Translations under genes and position numbers: made by a program
Shown: positions 1 through 52,446 of the stretch, piece by piece
Layout: every line of letters begins with the position of its first letter
Position numbering within the stretch: position 1 is the first letter of the stretch
Assembly: GCF_031180885.1 (NCBI RefSeq)
Contig: NZ_JAPSLK010000041.1
Span: 1 to 64,000, forward strand
DNA length: 64,000 nt
Source: Saccharothrix sp.
Lineage (GTDB): Bacteria > Actinomycetota > Actinomycetes > Mycobacteriales > Pseudonocardiaceae
Direction: 5' to 3'
Notes under the pieces: model-generated
What the model saw: only the letters and a program-made list of their open reading frames with translations
What the model was told of the DNA's origin: nothing
The model's database searches: none

Positions 1-76
1 GAACCCGGTAGTTAAGCCTTCCAGCGCCGATGGTACTGCACTCGTGAGGGTGTGGGAGAGTAGGACGCCGCCGAAC
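1..76 (+). rRNA. rrf: 5S ribosomal RNA, 3' part
   Basis: The first 76 bases match the 3' two-thirds of a bacterial 5S rRNA: the loop A/B region, then the conserved GTGGGAGAGTAGGACGCCGC stretch just before the 3' end. The 5' part lies outside the window. A strong rho-independent terminator follows within 10 bases, as expected for the last gene of an rRNA operon. The exact 3' end is uncertain by a few bases. Confidence 0.93.
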
Positions 77-32953: not shown

Positions 32954-33298
32954 TCAGGTTGCCCGCCGCCACCAACGCCTTTTCCGCGGCGGGGCCAGTT
33001 CCCCTTGTGCCACCGCCCATTCGGCGAACGCGGCGGCGTCCTCGCGGTACCGGCTGCCGGCCTGGCGTGGGTGGGCGCGGGCGTAGGTGTCGAACAGCGG
33101 CCGGAACTTCTCGCCCAGCGCGTCGGCCACGTCGGGGCGCAGCATCGCCACGATCCCGCGCCGCTTGTTCAGCAGCACCCGTGCCTCGACGCGCAGCCGT
33201 TCCGGGTCGAACCCGGGTGGCGGCGCGCCGTCGCCCAGCAGCGCCCGCAACAGCTCGGCTTGTCGCGCCGCAAGCCTTTCGCGCTGCGGCCGGGTCAC
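32954..33298 (-). CDS. small MNIO partner-like protein (SCO6045-like C-terminal domain type)
   Basis: The 114-residue protein is helical and basic. It contains [53 protein letters not shown], a pattern resembling the partner domains (DUF2063-like or SCO6045-like C-terminus) that accompany DUF692 enzymes and present their peptide substrate. GTG 33298 overlaps the DUF692 stop (GTGA), so enzyme and partner are coupled and likely act as a complex. Cys is absent. Assignment rests on the resemblance and on position. Confidence 0.65.
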
Positions 33299-34188
33299 GC
33301 CAGCACCGCCCGGATCGCGGCCAGCTCACCCGCCAGCTCGGCGTCCGACGGGTAGTCGTCGTCGCGCTCCAGCAGCACACCCGGTGGGTCGACCCGTTCT
33401 TTGAGCTGCCGCAGCACGTCCAGCACCTCCGGGAGCACGGCGTGGGCGTGCGTGTCGTGGTAGACGCCTTGGTGTTCCCGGCCGCCCGCCACGTGCACGT
33501 ATGCCAAGCGCTCCAAGGGGATCTCGTCGAGGAAGCGGCCGACGTCGGTGCCCAGGTTGCGGGCGTTGGCGTAGAGGTTGGCCACGTCGACCAGCAGCAG
33601 GCAGTCCGTGCGCTCGACGAGTTCGGCCAGGAACCGGCCCTCGGACAACTCGGCGTCGGGCCACTCCAGCAGGGCGGCCACGTTCTCCAGCGCCAGCGGC
33701 ACCGGCAGGTCGGCTCGCGCGGCCTTCACGTTGGCCACCAACACGTCCAGCGCCTCACGTGTGCGCGGCACCGGCATGAGGTGCCCGGAGTCCAACCCGC
33801 CCGCGCGCACGAAGCACACGTGGTCGCTGACGAACGGGGCGTCCAGCGCCTCTGCCAGCGCGCCCAGGTGCGCCACGCGGTGCGCGTCCACGGGGTCCGC
33901 GCCGCCCAGGCTCAGCGAGACGGCGTGCGGCAGCACCGGCACGCCGCGCCCGCGCAGCACCCGCACCGACTCGGGCAGCCGGTCCGCGTGCAGGTTCTCC
34001 GCTACCACCTCGACGAAGTCGACGTCGAGCCGTTCGACGGTCAGGTCGATCTCGGGTCGCCACCCGATGCCGACACCCAGCCCTTCCACCACCCACCCAC
34101 TCTCCCCCGCGGCGGCGGGGCCAGCGAGGCGAGGGCGGCCTCCGGCACGCCCACCGCCGTTCCGAACCGGCTTGCGGTCCTCCGTCAC
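33295..34188 (-). CDS. DUF692 family (MNIO-type) iron-dependent oxidative enzyme
   Basis: The roughly 297-residue TIM-barrel protein carries the DUF692/MNIO metal-site landmarks: [35 protein letters not shown] (His), FVSDHVCF (Asp, His), [12 protein letters not shown] (Glu, Asn), [15 protein letters not shown] (Asp, Asn), AYVHVAGG (His), YHDTHAHAV (Asp, His) and LLERDDDYP (Glu, Asp). MbnB, TglH and relatives bind two or three irons and convert peptide Cys to heterocycles or excise its beta-carbon. The start is uncertain: GTG 34188 or an internal GTG at 34092 with GGGGGAGAG before it. It lies downstream of three TIGR04222-type genes. Confidence 0.85.
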
Positions 34189-34261
34189 CGCCGCACCGCC
34201 CCGGAGACCGCCCCGGCCACTGCGATGCCGCGTCCTCCGGCGTCAACACGCGTCCCCCCGA

Positions 34262-35074
34262 TCAGTCCCCACCCCCACCGCCGCAACCCCCGCCACCGCA
34301 CGACGAACCGCTGTCGGAGGACGACGACGACCCGCTGTCCGAAGAAGAACCGCCGCAGCTGCTGCTCGAACAGCTCCCGCACCCACTGCCGCACGAAGCG
34401 CTGCCGCTGGACCCGTCACCCTTGCGCCGCCGCCGCAGCCCGGCCGCCGCGACCGGGTCGATGCCCAGGACCTGCCACACGAACTGCTTGCCCACCTTGC
34501 CCAGCAGCCCGTAGTACGCCACCAGCGGCACCGGCTGCGAGGTCACCACCCCGGCCCCCAGCCGCCGCACCGTCGACCGCCCGGCCCGGGTCAGCGGGCG
34601 CACGTACGGCGAAGTCACCCCCGTGGCCACCATCAGGCCGACGAACGCCGAGAGCACCGTCCCGAACGTCAGGTCGCCGAAGAGCGACCACAGCACCAGG
34701 CCGATCCAGCTCAGGAAGAACACCCGGCGCACCCACCGCACCGCGCGCACCGACCCGGCCGAGCGCACGTACCCGCTCTCGACCAGGTTCTGCCGCAACG
34801 ACTGCGCCTCGACGCTGCGCGCCCCGGCCACGACCAGGTCGCCCAGCGGGCGCGGCACGGACCGCAGCACGAAGGTCTGCAGCGGCGTCCACGACCGCGG
34901 CAGCCCCTGGACGGCGCTCACCAGGCCGTTGCGGGCGATGCGCAGGGCGCCGGCCTCCACCAGGGACACCACGGCCACCTCGGTGGCGCGCCCCGGCCCA
35001 CCGGCCAGGAAACCCTGCTGCTCGGGCCACAGCTCAGCCGAAACTCCCGAAGTCGACGTCCACGAAGTCGCCAC
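34262..35074 (-). CDS. TIGR04222-type membrane protein with long Ser/Gly/Cys tail
   Basis: The 270-residue protein has the family core (LWPEQQGFLAGGPGRATEVAVVSLVEAGALRI), two hydrophobic helices at about 120-165 (FFLSWIGLVLWSLFGDL, TVLSAFVGLMVATGV), and a low-complexity tail (about 225-270) with seven cysteines in CGSGCGSC, SSCGG and CGGGGCGGGGG contexts. GTG 35074 was chosen because GGAGG lies 6 bases upstream; it overlaps the upstream gene by 41 bp. The tail is a plausible target for the DUF692 enzyme encoded 73 bp downstream. Confidence 0.72.
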   Translation of the reverse strand: MATSWTSTSGVSAELWPEQQGFLAGGPGRATEVAVVSLVEAGALRIARNGLVSAVQGLPRSWTPLQTFVLRSVPRPLGDLVVAGARSVEAQSLRQNLVESGYVRSAGSVRAVRWVRRVFFLSWIGLVLWSLFGDLTFGTVLSAFVGLMVATGVTSPYVRPLTRAGRSTVRRLGAGVVTSQPVPLVAYYGLLGKVGKQFVWQVLGIDPVAAAGLRRRRKGDGSSGSASCGSGCGSCSSSSCGGSSSDSGSSSSSDSGSSCGGGGCGGGGGD

Positions 35075-35939
35075 CGTCATCCTCCAACCACTGCGAGGCC
35101 AACCAGCCACCCGCCAGCCAGCCGCCCGCGACCAGCCAGCCGTTGCGCTGACGCCAGCGCCTCGGCTCGACGACCACGACCCGCTGCCCCCGTCGGGGGA
35201 TCGGTGCATCCGACGTCTCGGCGGACCTGATCGGTTCCGCCTGCTCGCCGTCGAAAACCGCTGTTTGCGCCCGTGCCGACCCCTTGGGCGGCACGGGCAC
35301 AACAGCTGTGCGGACCAGGCCGTAGCGGGCGGTCACCTCGGCCGGGTCGACCGGCGCGAGACCCGCGGTGGCCTCCTCGAACGCCCGCGCGCCCGACCTG
35401 GTCAGGACGGGCGGCGGACCCAGCGACAACACCACGGCGGCCAACGCGGTGACCGACAGCGCGGTCGCGGTCACCCAGCCGCCCGGCGTCGTCAAGGCGC
35501 CGACGACACCCAGCACCACCAGTGGCAGCACCGCGAGCACGGCCCGCCACAGCCGCCGTCGCGGCGCCACCAGCAGTCCGGCCGCGACCAGGCCGTGGCC
35601 CAGCTTGCGCGCCGGTCCGCTGGTGGCCGCGGCGACGACCAGTTCGTCCAGGTCCCGCGGCTCGTCCAACCGGGCCAGCAGAACCGCTTGCAACTCCGAG
35701 ACCGGGCCGGGTTCCTGTCCCGGCACGGCGGTGACGGCGTACCCGGCGGCCTTCGCCCGGTTGTCCGCCACCAGCCCGGCCACCGCCACCTCGACCGCCC
35801 GCACCGGGCCGCCGCCGAGGTAGCCGATCTCCTCGAAGGTCAGCGGCCGGGTCGGCGGCGACCCGGTGACCCGCTTGAGCAGGAGGCCGAACAGGAACGC
35901 CGCCACGAGCGCCGGGCCGTACCACCACAGGAACCCCAT
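35034..35939 (-). CDS. TIGR04222-type membrane protein without Cys tail
   Basis: The 301-residue protein has an N-terminal helix (WWYGPALVAAFLFGLLL), the family core (TFEEIGYLGGGPVRAVEVAVAGLVADNRAK), then two hydrophobic helices (VLAVLPLVVLGVVGALTT and TALSVTALAAVVLSL). The C-terminus is Trp/Gly-rich (LVAGGWLAGGWLASQWLEDDGGDFVDVDF), without cysteine. It is the middle one of three paralogues. Ten bases separate it from the one upstream; the next gene's start lies inside its 3' end. Confidence 0.75.
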   Translation of the reverse strand: MGFLWWYGPALVAAFLFGLLLKRVTGSPPTRPLTFEEIGYLGGGPVRAVEVAVAGLVADNRAKAAGYAVTAVPGQEPGPVSELQAVLLARLDEPRDLDELVVAAATSGPARKLGHGLVAAGLLVAPRRRLWRAVLAVLPLVVLGVVGALTTPGGWVTATALSVTALAAVVLSLGPPPVLTRSGARAFEEATAGLAPVDPAEVTARYGLVRTAVVPVPPKGSARAQTAVFDGEQAEPIRSAETSDAPIPRRGQRVVVVEPRRWRQRNGWLVAGGWLAGGWLASQWLEDDGGDFVDVDFGSFG

Positions 35940-35949
35940 GCCGCCCAGC

Positions 35950-36912
35950 CTAGGAGCCGCCACCGCCACCGCCGCAGCCGCCGCCTCCGCCGCAACTGCT
36001 CCCGCCGCCGTCGTAGCCCCCTGACCCTCCGTCGTGGACGCCCGCCGCGCCGGTCTGGAAGCTCGCGGCCCGGCCCACGCCGAACAGCGCGCCACCGCGC
36101 GTGCCGTGCAGCCAGCGGCTGGACTGGCGCTTGGGCTTGCCCGTGGTCAGCGCGGCGTAGCGCTGACCGGCGGCGGCGAGCGGCGAGTCCGGGTGGTGGG
36201 CGAACCCGTCGAGGGCGACCAGCCCGGCGGCGCCCGCCGAGCTGATCACCCCCGAACCCCCGGTGCCCTCGCCTGCGCGAGCCCTGGCCACCGCGCGGGA
36301 ACCCCGGGCGGTGCGCTTGAAGCCGTCGACCCGCAGCAGCAGGCCGACGAGGATGCCGCTGAGCACGAGCTGGAGCGTCAGCCAGCCCACCGGCGCGCCG
36401 ATCAGCAGCCCGTTCGCCCACCGCACCGCGCCCACGGCCATGAGCAGCAGCAACGGGACCACGCCGATGCGGTAGTGGCGCTTGAGCACTTCCGGCGCGA
36501 GCAGGTAACCCTGGGCGGCGAGCGCGCGCCCGAACCCCCTCGGCGCGTCCTGCTCGGACACGGCCGTGAACAGCAGTGACAACGTCCGGTGCCGGTAGCG
36601 CGCGGCGTCGGTGAGCACCGCCTGGTCAACGGTGTCGTCCGCGACCGGGTCGCCCACGACCCGCACCGCGCCGTCCCGCGCCGGGCGCAGCTTGCCGGAC
36701 TCGATCAACGCGGCGACCGACGTCTCGACCACGCGCCGCGGTCCGCCGGTCAGGTAGGCGATGTCGTAGAGGCCGAGCGAACCTGCGGGGGCGCTGTGGC
36801 GCTTCCCCCGCAGGCGCACTCGGACGACGATCGCGAAGGCCAGCGACGCGGCCAACGCGATCCAGTACAACTCAAGGAATTCCGGGCCTGACAGTCCCCA
36901 CGGTCGCGCCAC
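35950..36912 (-). CDS. TIGR04222-type membrane protein with Gly/Cys tail
   Basis: The 320-residue protein starts with GPEFLELYWIALAASLAFAIVVRVRLRG (membrane helix), then LGLYDIAYLTGGPRRVVETSVAALIESGKLRP (family core). Two helices follow in the middle (VVPLLLLMAVGAVRWANGLLIG and LTLQLVLSGILVGLLLRV). A Gly-rich tail ends the protein with SSCGGGGGCGGGGGG. GTG 36912 has AGGGGG 6 bases upstream. It is the first of the three paralogues, and probably heads the operon that ends with the DUF692 enzyme and its partner. Confidence 0.78.
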   Translation of the reverse strand: MARPWGLSGPEFLELYWIALAASLAFAIVVRVRLRGKRHSAPAGSLGLYDIAYLTGGPRRVVETSVAALIESGKLRPARDGAVRVVGDPVADDTVDQAVLTDAARYRHRTLSLLFTAVSEQDAPRGFGRALAAQGYLLAPEVLKRHYRIGVVPLLLLMAVGAVRWANGLLIGAPVGWLTLQLVLSGILVGLLLRVDGFKRTARGSRAVARARAGEGTGGSGVISSAGAAGLVALDGFAHHPDSPLAAAGQRYAALTTGKPKRQSSRWLHGTRGGALFGVGRAASFQTGAAGVHDGGSGGYDGGGSSCGGGGGCGGGGGGS

Positions 36913-37004
36913 GGTCCACCCCCTGTGGGCCTCGGCGGACTTGTGGTCCGCCGACACTGGAGACGCAATCGTGTGCTTCAGGCCACACCCCGGCAAGGGT
37001 GCTT

Positions 37005-49309: not shown

Positions 49310-49847
49310 CCAGGCCGCACTTTCCGCCGAGGCTGGGCCGGGACCTTTCGCCGCAGGCGGGCTCGGCTTTCCGCCGGAGGGGTCCGCCGCAGGCGGGGGC
49401 ATTTGGGGCTTGTGCGAGGTGGCCTGGGTGGGGGTGGGCGGGCGGAACGCCCGAAGCGACACAGCCCACCCACCTGCCAACCACCCCCCAACCTCCCCGA
49501 ACCACCCAACCCACCCCCACCCCACCGCGCCACCGATCCCGTCGCCGCTTCTCGCTCCACCGCCCGAAGCACTCCACCGCCGCTGCTGCACCGCCGCTGC
49601 TGCACCGCCGCTGCTGCACCGCCGCTGCTGCACCGCTGCCGCTGCACCGCTGCCGCCGCGCCGCCGCCGTTGCCCGCCGCGCCACCGACCCCACACCGCG
49701 CCCACCTCCAGTCCACTGTGGACCGAAGTCGTCCCCTTGCGCTCGTCATCGCGACGGTCGCACAGTTAAGGGCACGAGCCCGCGGAATTGTCGGTGCCGT
49801 AGGGCAAGCTGCACGCTGACCGATCTTGCCCGCAGCGGAGGTGCCCC
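49310..49847. other. non-coding gap with tandem repeats
   Basis: This 538-bp gap has GC-rich CCGC/AGGCGGG clusters (about 49350-49400), a Pro/His/Thr-coding-like C-rich stretch (about 49440-49560), a 14-bp tandem repeat at 49576-49631, and a partial copy of the dispersed element's ACCGACAATTCCG end (minus strand, about 49783-49808). The last 40 bases are the promoter/leader of the following gene. Frames across it are unlike protein and the 14-bp repeat breaks any frame. Confidence 0.7.
49576..49631. repeat. 14-bp tandem repeat, four perfect copies
   Basis: ACCGCCGCTGCTGC occurs at 49576-49589, 49590-49603, 49604-49617 and 49618-49631, with diverged copies following to about 49659. The 14-bp unit shifts frame, so it argues against coding. 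Confidence 0.92.
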
Positions 49848-50579
49848 ATGGTGAAGGCGAAGCAGAAGTCACTCTCCCCGGAGGACCTCGACCACCTGCG
49901 CGCGGAACTCGCCGAGGGACGTCCCCCGATGGTCTGGTTCACCGCCGCCGCCGTCGGGGTGGAGGCCGGGCGGTCGGCGAAGGTGCTGGCGTTCACCGAG
50001 CCCGAGGAAGGCGACTTCATCCAGGTGCGGCCCACCGGGGCCAAGGACGAGTTGTCGTTCTCGCCCGGAGAGCTGACCCTGGAGAAGCCCGCCCCGCGCA
50101 AGAAGGCCCCCGCCAAACCCGCGGCCACCCCCACGACCGAGCCCACCCCGACACCCGAGCCCGCCCCGATCGAGTACCCCTACGAACCGGAGCCGAGAAC
50201 CGTGCCCGCCAGGACCACGCCCAAACCCACCACAGAGGCCAAACCGGAGGCCAAGCCGGCCGCCAAGCCCACCGCCGAAGCCAAGCCCCGGCCGGCCGCG
50301 CGCAAGCAGGCCAAGCCGGCCGAGGTGACCGTCACCCTCACCTCCACCGCCGAAGGGGAGTGGACGGTCGACGTCCAAACCGGCACCAAACGGGTCCTCA
50401 AGGGCGCACCGGTCGCCGCCTCCGCCGTGGCGCAGGCCGCGAAGCTCCTCCCGCCCGAGGTGGACGAAGCGGTCGAAGGGGTTTTGAGCGCTGCTCGGGA
50501 ACGGCACGCCGCCCGCGTGGAACAACTCCGCGCGGAGTTGGAAGCCGCCCAACGGGCATTGGACGAGCTGTCCGGCTGA
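49848..50579 (+). CDS. DUF6319-like protein with Ala/Lys/Pro-rich linker
   Basis: The 243-residue protein has an N-terminal compact domain (about 1-80, SPEDLDHLRAELAEGRPPMVWFTAAAVGVEAGRSAKVLAF, EGDFIQVRPTGAKDELSF). A long Pro/Ala/Lys linker (about 80-155, PTTEPTPTPEPAP, KPAAKPTAEAKPRPAARK) follows. The C-terminus has VTVTLTSTAEGEWTVDVQTG and then a coiled coil (about 205-243, EQLRAELEAAQRALDEL). It fits DUF6319-type actinobacterial proteins. Function is unknown; the linker is compatible with nucleoid or envelope proteins. Confidence 0.8.
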   Translation: MVKAKQKSLSPEDLDHLRAELAEGRPPMVWFTAAAVGVEAGRSAKVLAFTEPEEGDFIQVRPTGAKDELSFSPGELTLEKPAPRKKAPAKPAATPTTEPTPTPEPAPIEYPYEPEPRTVPARTTPKPTTEAKPEAKPAAKPTAEAKPRPAARKQAKPAEVTVTLTSTAEGEWTVDVQTGTKRVLKGAPVAASAVAQAAKLLPPEVDEAVEGVLSAARERHAARVEQLRAELEAAQRALDELSG

Positions 50580-50724
50580 ATATGCCGACACGCAGTGCGA
50601 CATTCTGATGATAAATGCCGAGCGATCGGGTGACGGTACTTCCCCTGCCCGGCGGTAGGGCGCACCGTGGGGGCCGTCATACCTTGCCAGTGCTGGATGT
50701 CCGCGCGATCACGGGGAGGCCATG

Positions 50725-50826
50725 ATGGCGGTAGAGATCACGACGGCGGAGCAGGCCCAGATGAGCGGTTGCGGCTGCTGCGGCGGCTGCACCGGGCCCG
50801 GCTGCGGGTGCTGCTCCAGCTGTTGA
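50725..50826 (+). CDS. 33-residue cysteine-rich peptide
   Basis: ATG 50725 follows GGGGAGG by 5 bases (an ATG at 50722 also lies in frame). The frame encodes 33 residues: an acidic-polar leader MAVEITTAEQAQMSG, then a core with nine cysteines in the last 18 residues (CGCC, GGC, GCGCC, SSC spacing). A perfect rho-independent terminator begins 14 bases after the stop, so this is a single small gene. A leader/Cys-core form suggests a RiPP precursor (for example for a DUF692-type enzyme) or a metallothionein-like metal binder. No maturase is adjacent. Confidence 0.8.
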   Translation: MAVEITTAEQAQMSGCGCCGGCTGPGCGCCSSC

Positions 50827-50840
50827 CCCCGACCAGGCGA

Positions 50841-50872
50841 AAGGGCCCCGCACCGACGAGTGCGGGGCCCTT
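50841..50872 (+). terminator. rho-independent terminator of the Cys-rich peptide gene
   Basis: AAGGGCCCCGCAC (50841-50853) pairs with GTGCGGGGCCCTT (50860-50872) around a 6-base loop, followed by a T-run of four. It begins 14 bases after the peptide's stop and also lies before the convergent hydrolase gene. Confidence 0.92.
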
Positions 50873-50907
50873 TTCACGTGAATTCGCATTGATACCCGAA
50901 AAATGGA

Positions 50908-52446
50908 TCAGGGCGGGCACACCGTGCCACCGGACGGCACCTTCGCATTCGCCAGGAAATCGTGCGCCACGGTCGTCGCGCAGGCCGACTGCCCGAGCGC
51001 CCCGTGCCCGCTGCCCTGCCAGCCCACCAGCACCCCGGCGGGCAGCGCCTGCGCCGCCCGTTCGGTGCCACCCTGCGGAGTGACGGGGTCGTTGGCCGTG
51101 CTGATCACCAGGATCGGCGGCGCACTGCTCAGCTTCGGCACCTTCACCGCCTGCGGCACCGGGAACGGCCCGCACTGCAGCATCCGGCGGGCGAACCACG
51201 ACCCGAACAGCGGGTGCTTGGACCGCCAGTCCTCGGTCATCACCTTCACCCGTTCCGGCGGGATGCGGGTGGTCGTGTCGTTGCAAGCGGTCACCATGGC
51301 CGCGTCCAGCAGCGGCGGGTTGTCGTCCCGGTCCACCACGTGCCGCCGAACGAAGTCCGTCAACGGCGCGGCGTTGCCGCCCTCGGCCGCCACGATCGCG
51401 TCCGCCAGCGCGGGCCAGCGCGGCCGGTCGGCCAGGCCCGCGAGGACCGCCGACACCGCCGTGCCCGCCGTCAGGTCCAGGTCGTTGCCGCGCACCGGCT
51501 TGTCCCGCAGCTTGCCCACCAGCGCGGTGAACCGCTTGGTGGCGTCCGCCCCCAACGGGCACCCGCGCGCCACGCAGTCCTTCTCGAACGCGCTGAACGC
51601 CGCCTCCGCCGCGACCGCCCGCGCCTCGGCCACGCCCGGCACGTCCAGCGTCGGGTCCGGCGCCCCGTCGAGCACGATCCGCCCGATCCGGTCCGGGTAG
51701 CGGCTCGCGTACATCGTCAGCACCCGCGACCCGTCGCCCACGCCGATCGCGTTGAGCAGCCCCACACCCAGCGCCTCGCGCAGCTGCTCCAGGTCCGCCG
51801 ACGTCCGCCACGAGTCCACGGCGGTCAGCTTGTTCTCCAGGTCCAGCACGCACTCGTGGCTGGCCCGGCCGACCCACTCCAGCATGTCGTCCTGGTCGGC
51901 GGAGTCCGGATCGGACTCGACGATCCCCACCCGCGCCACCTCGGGCACGCACTGCACCGGGTCGGACTTACCGGTGCCCCGCCGGTCCACCCCGATCAGG
52001 GTGAACGTGCTCAGCAGCTGCGGCGGCAGCGACGCGGCCAGCCGCGCGGCCTTCAACGTGCCCGGCTCGCCGTCCGCGTCACCGACGACGACCAGCGGGC
52101 TGCCGCCGGTGCCGACCCGCAGCAGCGCCATGCCCAGGCTGCCCCGGCCGGGCCGCCCGGTGGCGTCCAGCTTCACGGTCAGCCGCGCGCACTCGTAGTT
52201 CTGGTCGCCCGCCGGCGCCGTGCCGCCCATCCGCAGCTTGGTGGACTCGGTGCACTGCGACCAGGACAGCTGGGAGCCGTAGTTCTCCAGCGGCGGGACG
52301 TCGCGCGGTCCGCTCGGTTGAGAGGTCTCGGTGGCCTCGGTGTCCCCGCGCACGGCGATGACCGGGCGCGTCGAGGGCCCCGCGCTGCACGCGGTCAGCG
52401 CGCTCAGGGCCACCAGCAACATGGCGGCGTGACGCCGACGCGGCAC
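50908..52446 (-). CDS. secreted alpha/beta-hydrolase homologue (tripeptidyl aminopeptidase-type), nucleophile lost
   Basis: The 512-residue protein has a lipoprotein signal (LLVALSALTACSAG), then a large alpha/beta-hydrolase of the Streptomyces SlpD/tripeptidyl aminopeptidase type: LIGVDRRGTGKSDPVQC (oxyanion), CVLDLENKLTAVDSWRTSADLEQLREALGV, and the late acid/base parts ISTANDPVTPQGG (Asp) and GWQGSGHGALGQSACA (His), with conserved cysteines. At the nucleophile elbow the family's G-x-S-x-G is replaced by G-V-G-D-G (NAIGVGDGSRVL), so the catalytic Ser is absent. It is probably inactive or repurposed. Start GTG/ATG near 52446. Confidence 0.85.
   Translation of the reverse strand: MPRRRHAAMLLVALSALTACSAGPSTRPVIAVRGDTEATETSQPSGPRDVPPLENYGSQLSWSQCTESTKLRMGGTAPAGDQNYECARLTVKLDATGRPGRGSLGMALLRVGTGGSPLVVVGDADGEPGTLKAARLAASLPPQLLSTFTLIGVDRRGTGKSDPVQCVPEVARVGIVESDPDSADQDDMLEWVGRASHECVLDLENKLTAVDSWRTSADLEQLREALGVGLLNAIGVGDGSRVLTMYASRYPDRIGRIVLDGAPDPTLDVPGVAEARAVAAEAAFSAFEKDCVARGCPLGADATKRFTALVGKLRDKPVRGNDLDLTAGTAVSAVLAGLADRPRWPALADAIVAAEGGNAAPLTDFVRRHVVDRDDNPPLLDAAMVTACNDTTTRIPPERVKVMTEDWRSKHPLFGSWFARRMLQCGPFPVPQAVKVPKLSSAPPILVISTANDPVTPQGGTERAAQALPAGVLVGWQGSGHGALGQSACATTVAHDFLANAKVPSGGTVCPP

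What the first reader, a model, noticed from the sequence alone, without database searches (positions are those of the whole stretch)
50713..50872. Free-standing 33-residue peptide gene with nine cysteines, own ribosome-binding site and terminator
The sequence directly shows GGGGAGG, ATG, 33 codons with nine Cys in the last 18 residues, and a 13-bp-stem terminator with T-tail 14 bases after the stop. The leader-like acidic N-terminus and Cys-core layout suggest either a post-translationally modified peptide or a small metal-binding protein. It is too short for usual gene calling. A DUF692-type enzyme that could modify it is encoded 16 kb away.
Basis: partly seen in the sequence, partly recalled or inferred. 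Interest (0 to 1): 0.78.

Follow-up and report, generated by a model that had tools for sequence, protein, structure and literature searches.

The report
Tiny eight-cysteine peptide, likely metal-binding

Summary
The gene is real. Window 50725-50826 encodes MAVEITTAEQAQMSGCGCCGGCTGPGCGCCSSC: 33 residues with EIGHT cysteines, not nine. Relatives occur in 25 of 25 genomes of the genus, in 150 of 249 sampled genomes of the family (39 of 46 genera) and in none of 295 others sampled from the class. The eight-Cys core is in 61 of 61 loci examined and strongly conserved (pN/pS about 0.07); the N-terminus varies. A promoter-like module accompanies the gene through different neighbourhoods. DUF692 is unlikely to be its partner: 27 of 56 peptide-bearing genomes lack it, and the window's DUF692 gene adjoins three TIGR04222 genes, a known association. 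Best reading: a miniature, unmodified, metallothionein-like thiolate peptide. Zinc is favoured only because the extra copy in two congeners sits inside a Zur-type zinc gene cluster; copper or redox roles are not excluded. One archaeal peroxiredoxin carries the same eight-cysteine pattern. No Pfam or NCBIfam model, solved structure or paper found in my searches matched. Translation, metal binding and function are untested.

The parts
50641..50658 (+). Window instance of the conserved upstream element (family form TC[AG]CTC-N4-[AG]GCGGT[AG]TC)
   Evidence: EM motif and leave-one-out PWM: score 11.5 at -84, above all 36 control windows for this locus; 34 of 48 loci beat all their controls
50680..50685 (+). 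TACCTT, proposed -10 box, 20 nt after GGTAGG (50654-50659)
   Evidence: GGTNNN-N19/20-TA[ACG][CGT][GT]T upstream of 30 of 61 loci against 7 of 2898 control windows (pattern chosen after reading the loci); promoter role inferred
50713..50719 (+). ribosome-binding site GGGGAGG
   Evidence: GGAGG present in 25 of 26 main-locus copies aligned (not L011)
50725..50826 (+). 33-codon gene for the Cys8 peptide, stop included (alternative in-frame ATG at 50722)
50770..50823 (+). Cys core CGCCGGC-TGPG-CGCCSSC: two CxCCxxC modules joined by TGPG
   Evidence: eight Cys and G28 invariant; pattern in 61 of 61 loci
50839..50874 (+). terminator-like hairpin, possibly shared with the convergent gene
   Evidence: stronger than all 10 controls in 26 of 30 loci, window included
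50908..52446 (-). convergent TAP-like alpha/beta hydrolase; marker of the commonest locus, no functional link shown
   Evidence: PF08386 E 1.9e-20; in 34 of 61 loci (window counted), always downstream and convergent
49848..50579 (+). upstream DUF6319 gene; marker of the locus
   Evidence: PF19844 E 2e-18; 14 of 61 loci (window counted)
33295..34188 (-).

Best explanation
The gene encodes an unmodified cytosolic miniature metallothionein-like peptide. Two CxCCxxC modules joined by a short Thr/Ser-Gly-Pro turn present eight thiolates that wrap one small metal-thiolate cluster or two Cys4 sites. The peptide would buffer, store or hand over a soft metal, most likely zinc, with copper(I) as the alternative. 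It is transcribed alone from its own conserved promoter and ends at its own hairpin. Shown by computation: a gene conserved across a family, core under strong purifying selection, variable N-terminus, a conserved upstream module, duplication together with upstream sequence, and placement of two duplicates inside a zinc gene cluster. Inferred: translation, promoter function, metal binding, identity of the metal, cluster type, physiological role.
For: Found in 25 of 25 genus genomes and 150 of 249 family genomes, 39 of 46 genera. Core pS 0.50 against pN 0.036; all eight Cys codons encode Cys in 26 of 26 sequences, six of the eight with both TGC and TGT in use. Eight-Cys pattern in 61 of 61 loci. 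The window peptide has no aromatic residue or His and 8 Cys in 33. No conserved leader. In two congeners the second copy lies in a zinc cluster: L056 has a heavy-metal (Cd-family) P-type ATPase, a Fur-family regulator whose weak best match is Zur, ending 25 bp before the peptide, then L32, L31, an MRF GTPase, L28, L33, S14, S18 and a CobW/ZigA-like GTPase; L055 has MRF, L33, S14, S18, CobW/ZigA-like, another Fur-family regulator and anchored-repeat ABC transporter genes (L28, L31, L32, L33 by eye). The Streptomyces coelicolor Zur regulon lists the same kinds of gene (PMC6103462, passages). A Fur/Zur-box-like site lies before the presumed operon that holds the L056 copy (1 match, 0.03 expected, 4 of 200 shuffles). 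CxCC binds a tetranuclear Cu cluster in CopG (PMC7558416, passages).
Against: No binding, expression or phenotype data. A panel of 12 zinc-cluster proteins hit only 2 of 61 loci (other metal transporters would escape it), and these two may descend from one duplication; those copies carry upstream sequence like the main copy's, so Zur control is not implied. No Zur-box match in the window. No hit to any Pfam family at E 10 for 23 members, to NCBIfam at E 1 for the window peptide or to solved structures at E 10. The upstream element is not one I recognise as a metal-regulator box, and a pattern search of 8 genomes shows no clear regulon. Recurrent neighbours in some genera include a SelR/MsrB-type gene and heme-synthesis-type genes, which would fit a redox role as well.
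Confidence: 0.57

Rival explanations
1. Thiol-redox peptide: the CxCCxxC modules cycle between thiol and disulfide, acting as a reductant reservoir or sensor, with or without metal.
For: One archaeal peroxiredoxin (L052, PF00578 E 9e-34, NF009668 E 1.1e-93) has the same eight-Cys pattern at its N-terminus. A gene cluster whose tested member is SelR/MsrB-like occurs within 6 kb in 15 of 61 loci.
Against: The fusion was seen in 1 of 102 genomes of that archaeal family. It scores 25.4 bits with a model that lacks it (best of 5000 composition shuffles 16.9), E 6e-4 for a million sequences with a large composition bias, which is not significant against a whole database, so convergence is possible. 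msrB proximity may be mere gene order.
Confidence: 0.17
2. The metal is copper(I) rather than zinc, in a role comparable to MymT (a variant within the best explanation, so its odds overlap with it).
For: CxCC occurs in CopG's Cu cluster; MymT, a 4.9-kDa Cys-rich protein from a non-annotated frame, serves copper resistance (PMC7558416 passages). Very short Cys-rich copper thioneins are known in fungi (recalled, no call).
Against: I recognised no copper gene beside the loci that I annotated (only part of all neighbours); the only metal context found is zinc.
Confidence: 0.25
3. Precursor of a post-translationally modified peptide (DUF692/MNIO, radical SAM or YcaO product).
For: Cys-rich C-terminal core. 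In 18 of the 29 peptide genomes that have DUF692 it lies on the same contig 5.7-67 kb away and always on the peptide's upstream side (coordinates, distances worked out by hand).
Against: 27 of 56 peptide genomes lack DUF692, and 9 of 14 genomes without a detected peptide have it. It is never closer than 5.7 kb in those 18, the distance varies, and the window's copy has its own adjacent TIGR04222 genes. No conserved leader.
Confidence: 0.07
4. Cysteine-rich leader peptide that senses Cys-tRNA and attenuates a downstream gene.
For: Short Cys-rich reading frame followed by a hairpin.
Against: The TAP gene downstream is convergent in all 34 of 61 loci that have it, so it cannot be attenuated; the whole core, not just Cys codons, is conserved.
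Confidence: 0.03

Closest known systems
Bacterial metallothioneins (SmtA, MymT, Pseudomonas MTs; passages)
   Same: Small, Cys-rich, own gene; presumed cytosolic
   Different: Shorter; double CxCCxxC layout; no aromatic residue or His in the window peptide; no Pfam match; binding unproven
Fungal short copper thioneins (recalled)
   Same: About 25 residues, Cys with Gly/Ser spacers
   Different: Different Cys spacing as I recall it; no homology tested
Bufferins and other MNIO-modified peptides (PMC12452194, passages)
   Same: Cys-containing motifs; metal-related role
   Different: Those have linked MNIO genes and mostly Sec signal peptides; here DUF692 is absent from 27 of 56 genomes
Archaeal peroxiredoxin in SUTA01000013.1 (L052)
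   Same: CNCCDECTGPGCGCCEDC: all eight Cys and TGPGCGCC in register
   Different: N-terminal segment of a 283-residue enzyme, single genome found

Membership tests
Metallothionein | small, Cys about 20-30%, few or no aromatic residues (criterion recalled) | tested here: met
   8 Cys in 33 residues, none of F, W, Y or H in the window peptide; some relatives have a His, Phe or Tyr in the N-terminus
Metallothionein | CxC, CC or CxxC motifs | tested here: met
   two CxCCxxC modules, in 61 of 61 loci
Metallothionein | binds several d10 metal ions in thiolate clusters | not testable with these tools
   needs protein chemistry
Metallothionein | sequence match to a curated metallothionein model | tested here: not met
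   0 of 23 members match any Pfam family at E 10; window peptide, 0 NCBIfam families at E 1
Metallothionein | metal-responsive expression | tested here: inconclusive
   no Zur box in the window; conserved upstream element of unknown regulator; zinc cluster for extra copies only
MNIO/DUF692-dependent modified peptide | closely linked DUF692 gene | tested here: not met
   27 of 56 peptide genomes lack DUF692; nearest case 5.7 kb away
MNIO/DUF692-dependent modified peptide | conserved leader or Sec signal peptide | tested here: not met
   by inspection and pN/pS; no signal-peptide program was run
Radical SAM or YcaO modified peptide | linked maturase | not tested
   the neighbours annotated include none, but most neighbours were not scanned
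Zur-regulated gene | Zur box in the promoter | tested here: not met
   for the window; a box-like site exists upstream of the presumed operon holding the L056 copy

The most novel reading that the evidence does not exclude
This is a previously undescribed family of minimal metallothioneins (functional core about 20 residues, Cys8), widespread in one actinobacterial family yet missed by annotation because many members are near or under the usual 30-codon cut-off (cut-off recalled). It runs on a dedicated promoter, has been recruited into a Zur zinc cluster in two species, and the same module was joined to a peroxiredoxin in an archaeon, making it a portable metal-redox module.
Probability: 0.3. 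Interest if true: 0.75.

Novelty: new variant of a known kind. Interest (0 to 1): 0.53.

Why it matters
If the peptide binds metal, a conserved metal-buffering protein has been overlooked across a whole family of actinobacteria because it is so short. It would give a minimal, chemically synthesizable eight-thiolate module for testing how bacteria store and move zinc or copper, and the conserved upstream element would lead to an unknown regulator.

Tried and rejected
Rfam search of 50560-50900: nothing near a gathering score. AlphaFold on the single window peptide: mean pLDDT 56.7, pTM 0.15, uninformative. PDB profile search: 0 hits at E 10. Plasmid tblastn: no match for either query. Named-genome scan: 195 stretches matched the pattern, only 2 passed tblastn. 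The archaeal class and family were sampled for further fusions: one genome only; none of the four weaker hits carries the double pattern. Pattern search for a regulon in 8 genomes: in 7 of 8 fewer sites than the reversed-pattern control, but in G038 10 against 4, not followed up. Paper searches showed no description of this peptide; the library holds open-licence papers only. Cys attenuation leader: rejected by gene order. DUF692 link: rejected as above. Thirteen near-duplicate loci of 61 were dropped before the motif count of 48. In one search two intended positive controls (L056, L092) were cut at wrong positions and gave no score; L055 gave 45.7 bits.

Full report
What is there. The stretch reads GGGGAGG-ccatg-ATG and encodes MAVEITTAEQAQMSGCGCCGGCTGPGCGCCSSC, then TGA, then a strong hairpin. 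The cysteines number eight, not nine. The downstream ATG at 50725 is the likelier start: it has the better spacing and is the one kept in relatives, several of which have Ile in place of the first Met.

It is a gene. A protein search of 99 relatives found matches in 43: 25 of 25 of the genus, 18 of 34 from other genera of the family, 0 of 40 from other families of the order. The genus search again gave 25 of 25. With a 14-row profile, 150 of 249 genomes drawn from the family matched, 39 of 46 genera. In 296 genomes drawn from the class only the window's own genome matched. The window's own genus was not named by any search.

Selection. Over 26 main-locus copies (one from each of 25 genomes of the genus, plus G045 of a neighbouring genus) the 18-codon core has 23 distinct DNA sequences but 6 distinct peptides, mean pS 0.50 and pN 0.036. 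The N-terminal 15 codons (22 of the 26, those of equal length) have pS 0.44 and pN 0.21. The double pattern CxCCxxC-x4-CxCCxxC is present in 61 of 61 loci; the residues after the fourth Cys are TGP in 32, SGP in 22, and TAP, TGS, TGR, TGK or TGH in the other 7. Eight Cys and one Gly are invariant in 23 aligned rows. The stretch before the core is variable; in L081, L084 and L099 the only start codon within 20 residues lies 3 residues before the first Cys, which would make peptides of about 21-23 residues. Starts are not verified.

Locus. The window's convergent TAP-like hydrolase is found in 34 of 61 (window counted), always downstream on the opposite strand; DUF6319 in 14 and the EamA transporter in 24. 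Other loci have different neighbours, among them GroEL/GroES-like genes (by eye), an FMN reductase and a thioesterase. Clusters whose tested member matches SelR (MsrB), URO-D, amine oxidoreductase or chlorite dismutase families recur in 15, 9, 7 and 7 loci. The gene thus appears to be transcribed alone and has changed neighbours. Downstream hairpins are stronger than all 10 controls in 26 of 30 loci.

Own promoter-like module. Upstream sequence is conserved in the genus. An EM search over 48 loci (61 less 13 near-duplicates) found TC[AG]CTC-N4-[AG]GCGGT[AG]TC near -84. With a locus left out of its own matrix, its upstream region beats every control window (33-40 per locus) in 34 of 48 loci, spread over most of the neighbourhood types; related genera remain in the matrix, so the test is not fully independent. 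The 14 that fail include the three second copies L054, L055, L056. A box GGTNNN-N19/20-TA[ACG][CGT][GT]T lies upstream in 30 of 61 loci against 7 of 2898 control windows, with a pattern chosen after reading the loci. In 8 genomes picked for strong sites and searched with TCRCTCNNGTAGYGGTGTC, up to 2 mismatches, the peptide's own site was a zero- or one-mismatch hit in six; single one-mismatch sites occur elsewhere in two; all sites together were fewer than the reversed-pattern control in seven genomes but 10 against 4 in G038. I see a dedicated element and no clear regulon.

Metal context. Three of 25 genus genomes have a second copy at another locus (G008, G019, G021); G012 also has two hits, on two contigs, which may be an assembly duplicate and was not checked. 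In two of the three it lies in a zinc cluster. In L056 the order is heavy-metal (Cd-family) P-type ATPase, methyltransferase, Fur-family regulator (weak best match Zur), peptide 25 bp on, L32, L31, MRF GTPase, L28, L33, S14, S18, CobW/ZigA-like GTPase. L055 holds MRF, L33, S14, S18, CobW/ZigA-like, a different Fur-family regulator, a methyltransferase, a His-rich protein, the peptide and anchored-repeat ABC transporter genes (L28, L31, L32 and L33 recognised by eye). The S. coelicolor Zur regulon lists the same kinds of gene (PMC6103462, passages read). A Zur-box-like site TGACAATCATTTCCA (1 mismatch; 0.03 expected, 4 of 200 shuffles) precedes the methyltransferase-fur-peptide run; L055 has a two-mismatch site 45 nt upstream of its fur gene (3 sites with up to 3 mismatches, 0.30 expected). 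Against over-reading: the panel of 12 cluster proteins hit only these 2 of 61 loci; the two may descend from one duplication; the third second copy, L054, lies beside ABC transporter genes with no zinc gene seen; and each of the three has upstream sequence resembling the main copy's above all of about 280 controls for 2 to 4 of five reference loci, and not for the others, so they seem to have brought their own promoter. The window has no Zur-box match.

A fusion elsewhere. The named-genome scan, run with a profile that held only actinobacterial rows, returned one archaeal contig (SUTA01000013.1) in which CNCCDECTGPGCGCCEDC begins a 283-residue peroxiredoxin. That model gives it 25.4 bits with a bias term of 18.5; the best of 5000 composition-preserving shuffles gives 16.9. 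At database scale this is suggestive, not proof of homology. It was the only clear case in 102 genomes of its family and 200 of its class.

The DUF692 idea. The window's DUF692 gene (33295-34188) passes PF05114, matches MNIO maturase models below their cut-offs, and adjoins three TIGR04222 membrane proteins, one with a Cys/Ser/Gly-rich C-terminus, one with a Gly-rich one holding two Cys. The association is described for actinobacteria (PMC12452194, passages read). Of 56 peptide-bearing genomes 29 have a DUF692 gene and 27 do not; of 14 genomes without a detected peptide 9 have one. In 18 of the 29 it lies 5.7-67 kb away, always on the peptide's upstream side; TIGR04222-like matches also lie 4-6 kb upstream in L059, L071 and L100. 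I read this as regional gene order, since the distance varies and half the genomes lack the enzyme.

Verdict. The most economical function is a metallothionein-like thiolate peptide; zinc is favoured on thin evidence, copper or redox use remain open. Membership of the metallothionein class cannot be claimed, since binding is untested and no curated model matches. Novelty: a new family of a known functional kind, if the inference is right.

Noticed in passing
window 33295-36996 (-): DUF692/MNIO gene beside three TIGR04222 membrane protein genes; one C-terminus is rich in Cys, Ser and Gly, another is Gly-rich with two Cys: possible MNIO substrates.
   Followed up: partly
L052:5986-6837: Archaeal peroxiredoxin with an N-terminal eight-Cys segment matching the peptide core.
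   Followed up: partly
L120, L121, L122, L123, L124, L125: Phage proteins with a Cys-rich insert of different spacing after an acidic stretch.
   Followed up: no
L055:6415-6711: 98-residue His-rich protein beside the zinc-cluster copy of the peptide, no NCBIfam match.
   Followed up: no
window about 49540-49700: Repetitive GC-rich stretch that gives Ala/Pro/His/Cys repeats in several frames, just upstream of DUF6319 (seen in the translations).
   Followed up: no
L056:5433-5975: Fur-family regulator whose C-terminal coding end overlaps the upstream region that resembles the main copy's module.
   Followed up: partly
G038 genome: Ten sites for the upstream-element pattern against four for the control, unlike the other seven genomes: a possible small regulon.
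   Followed up: no
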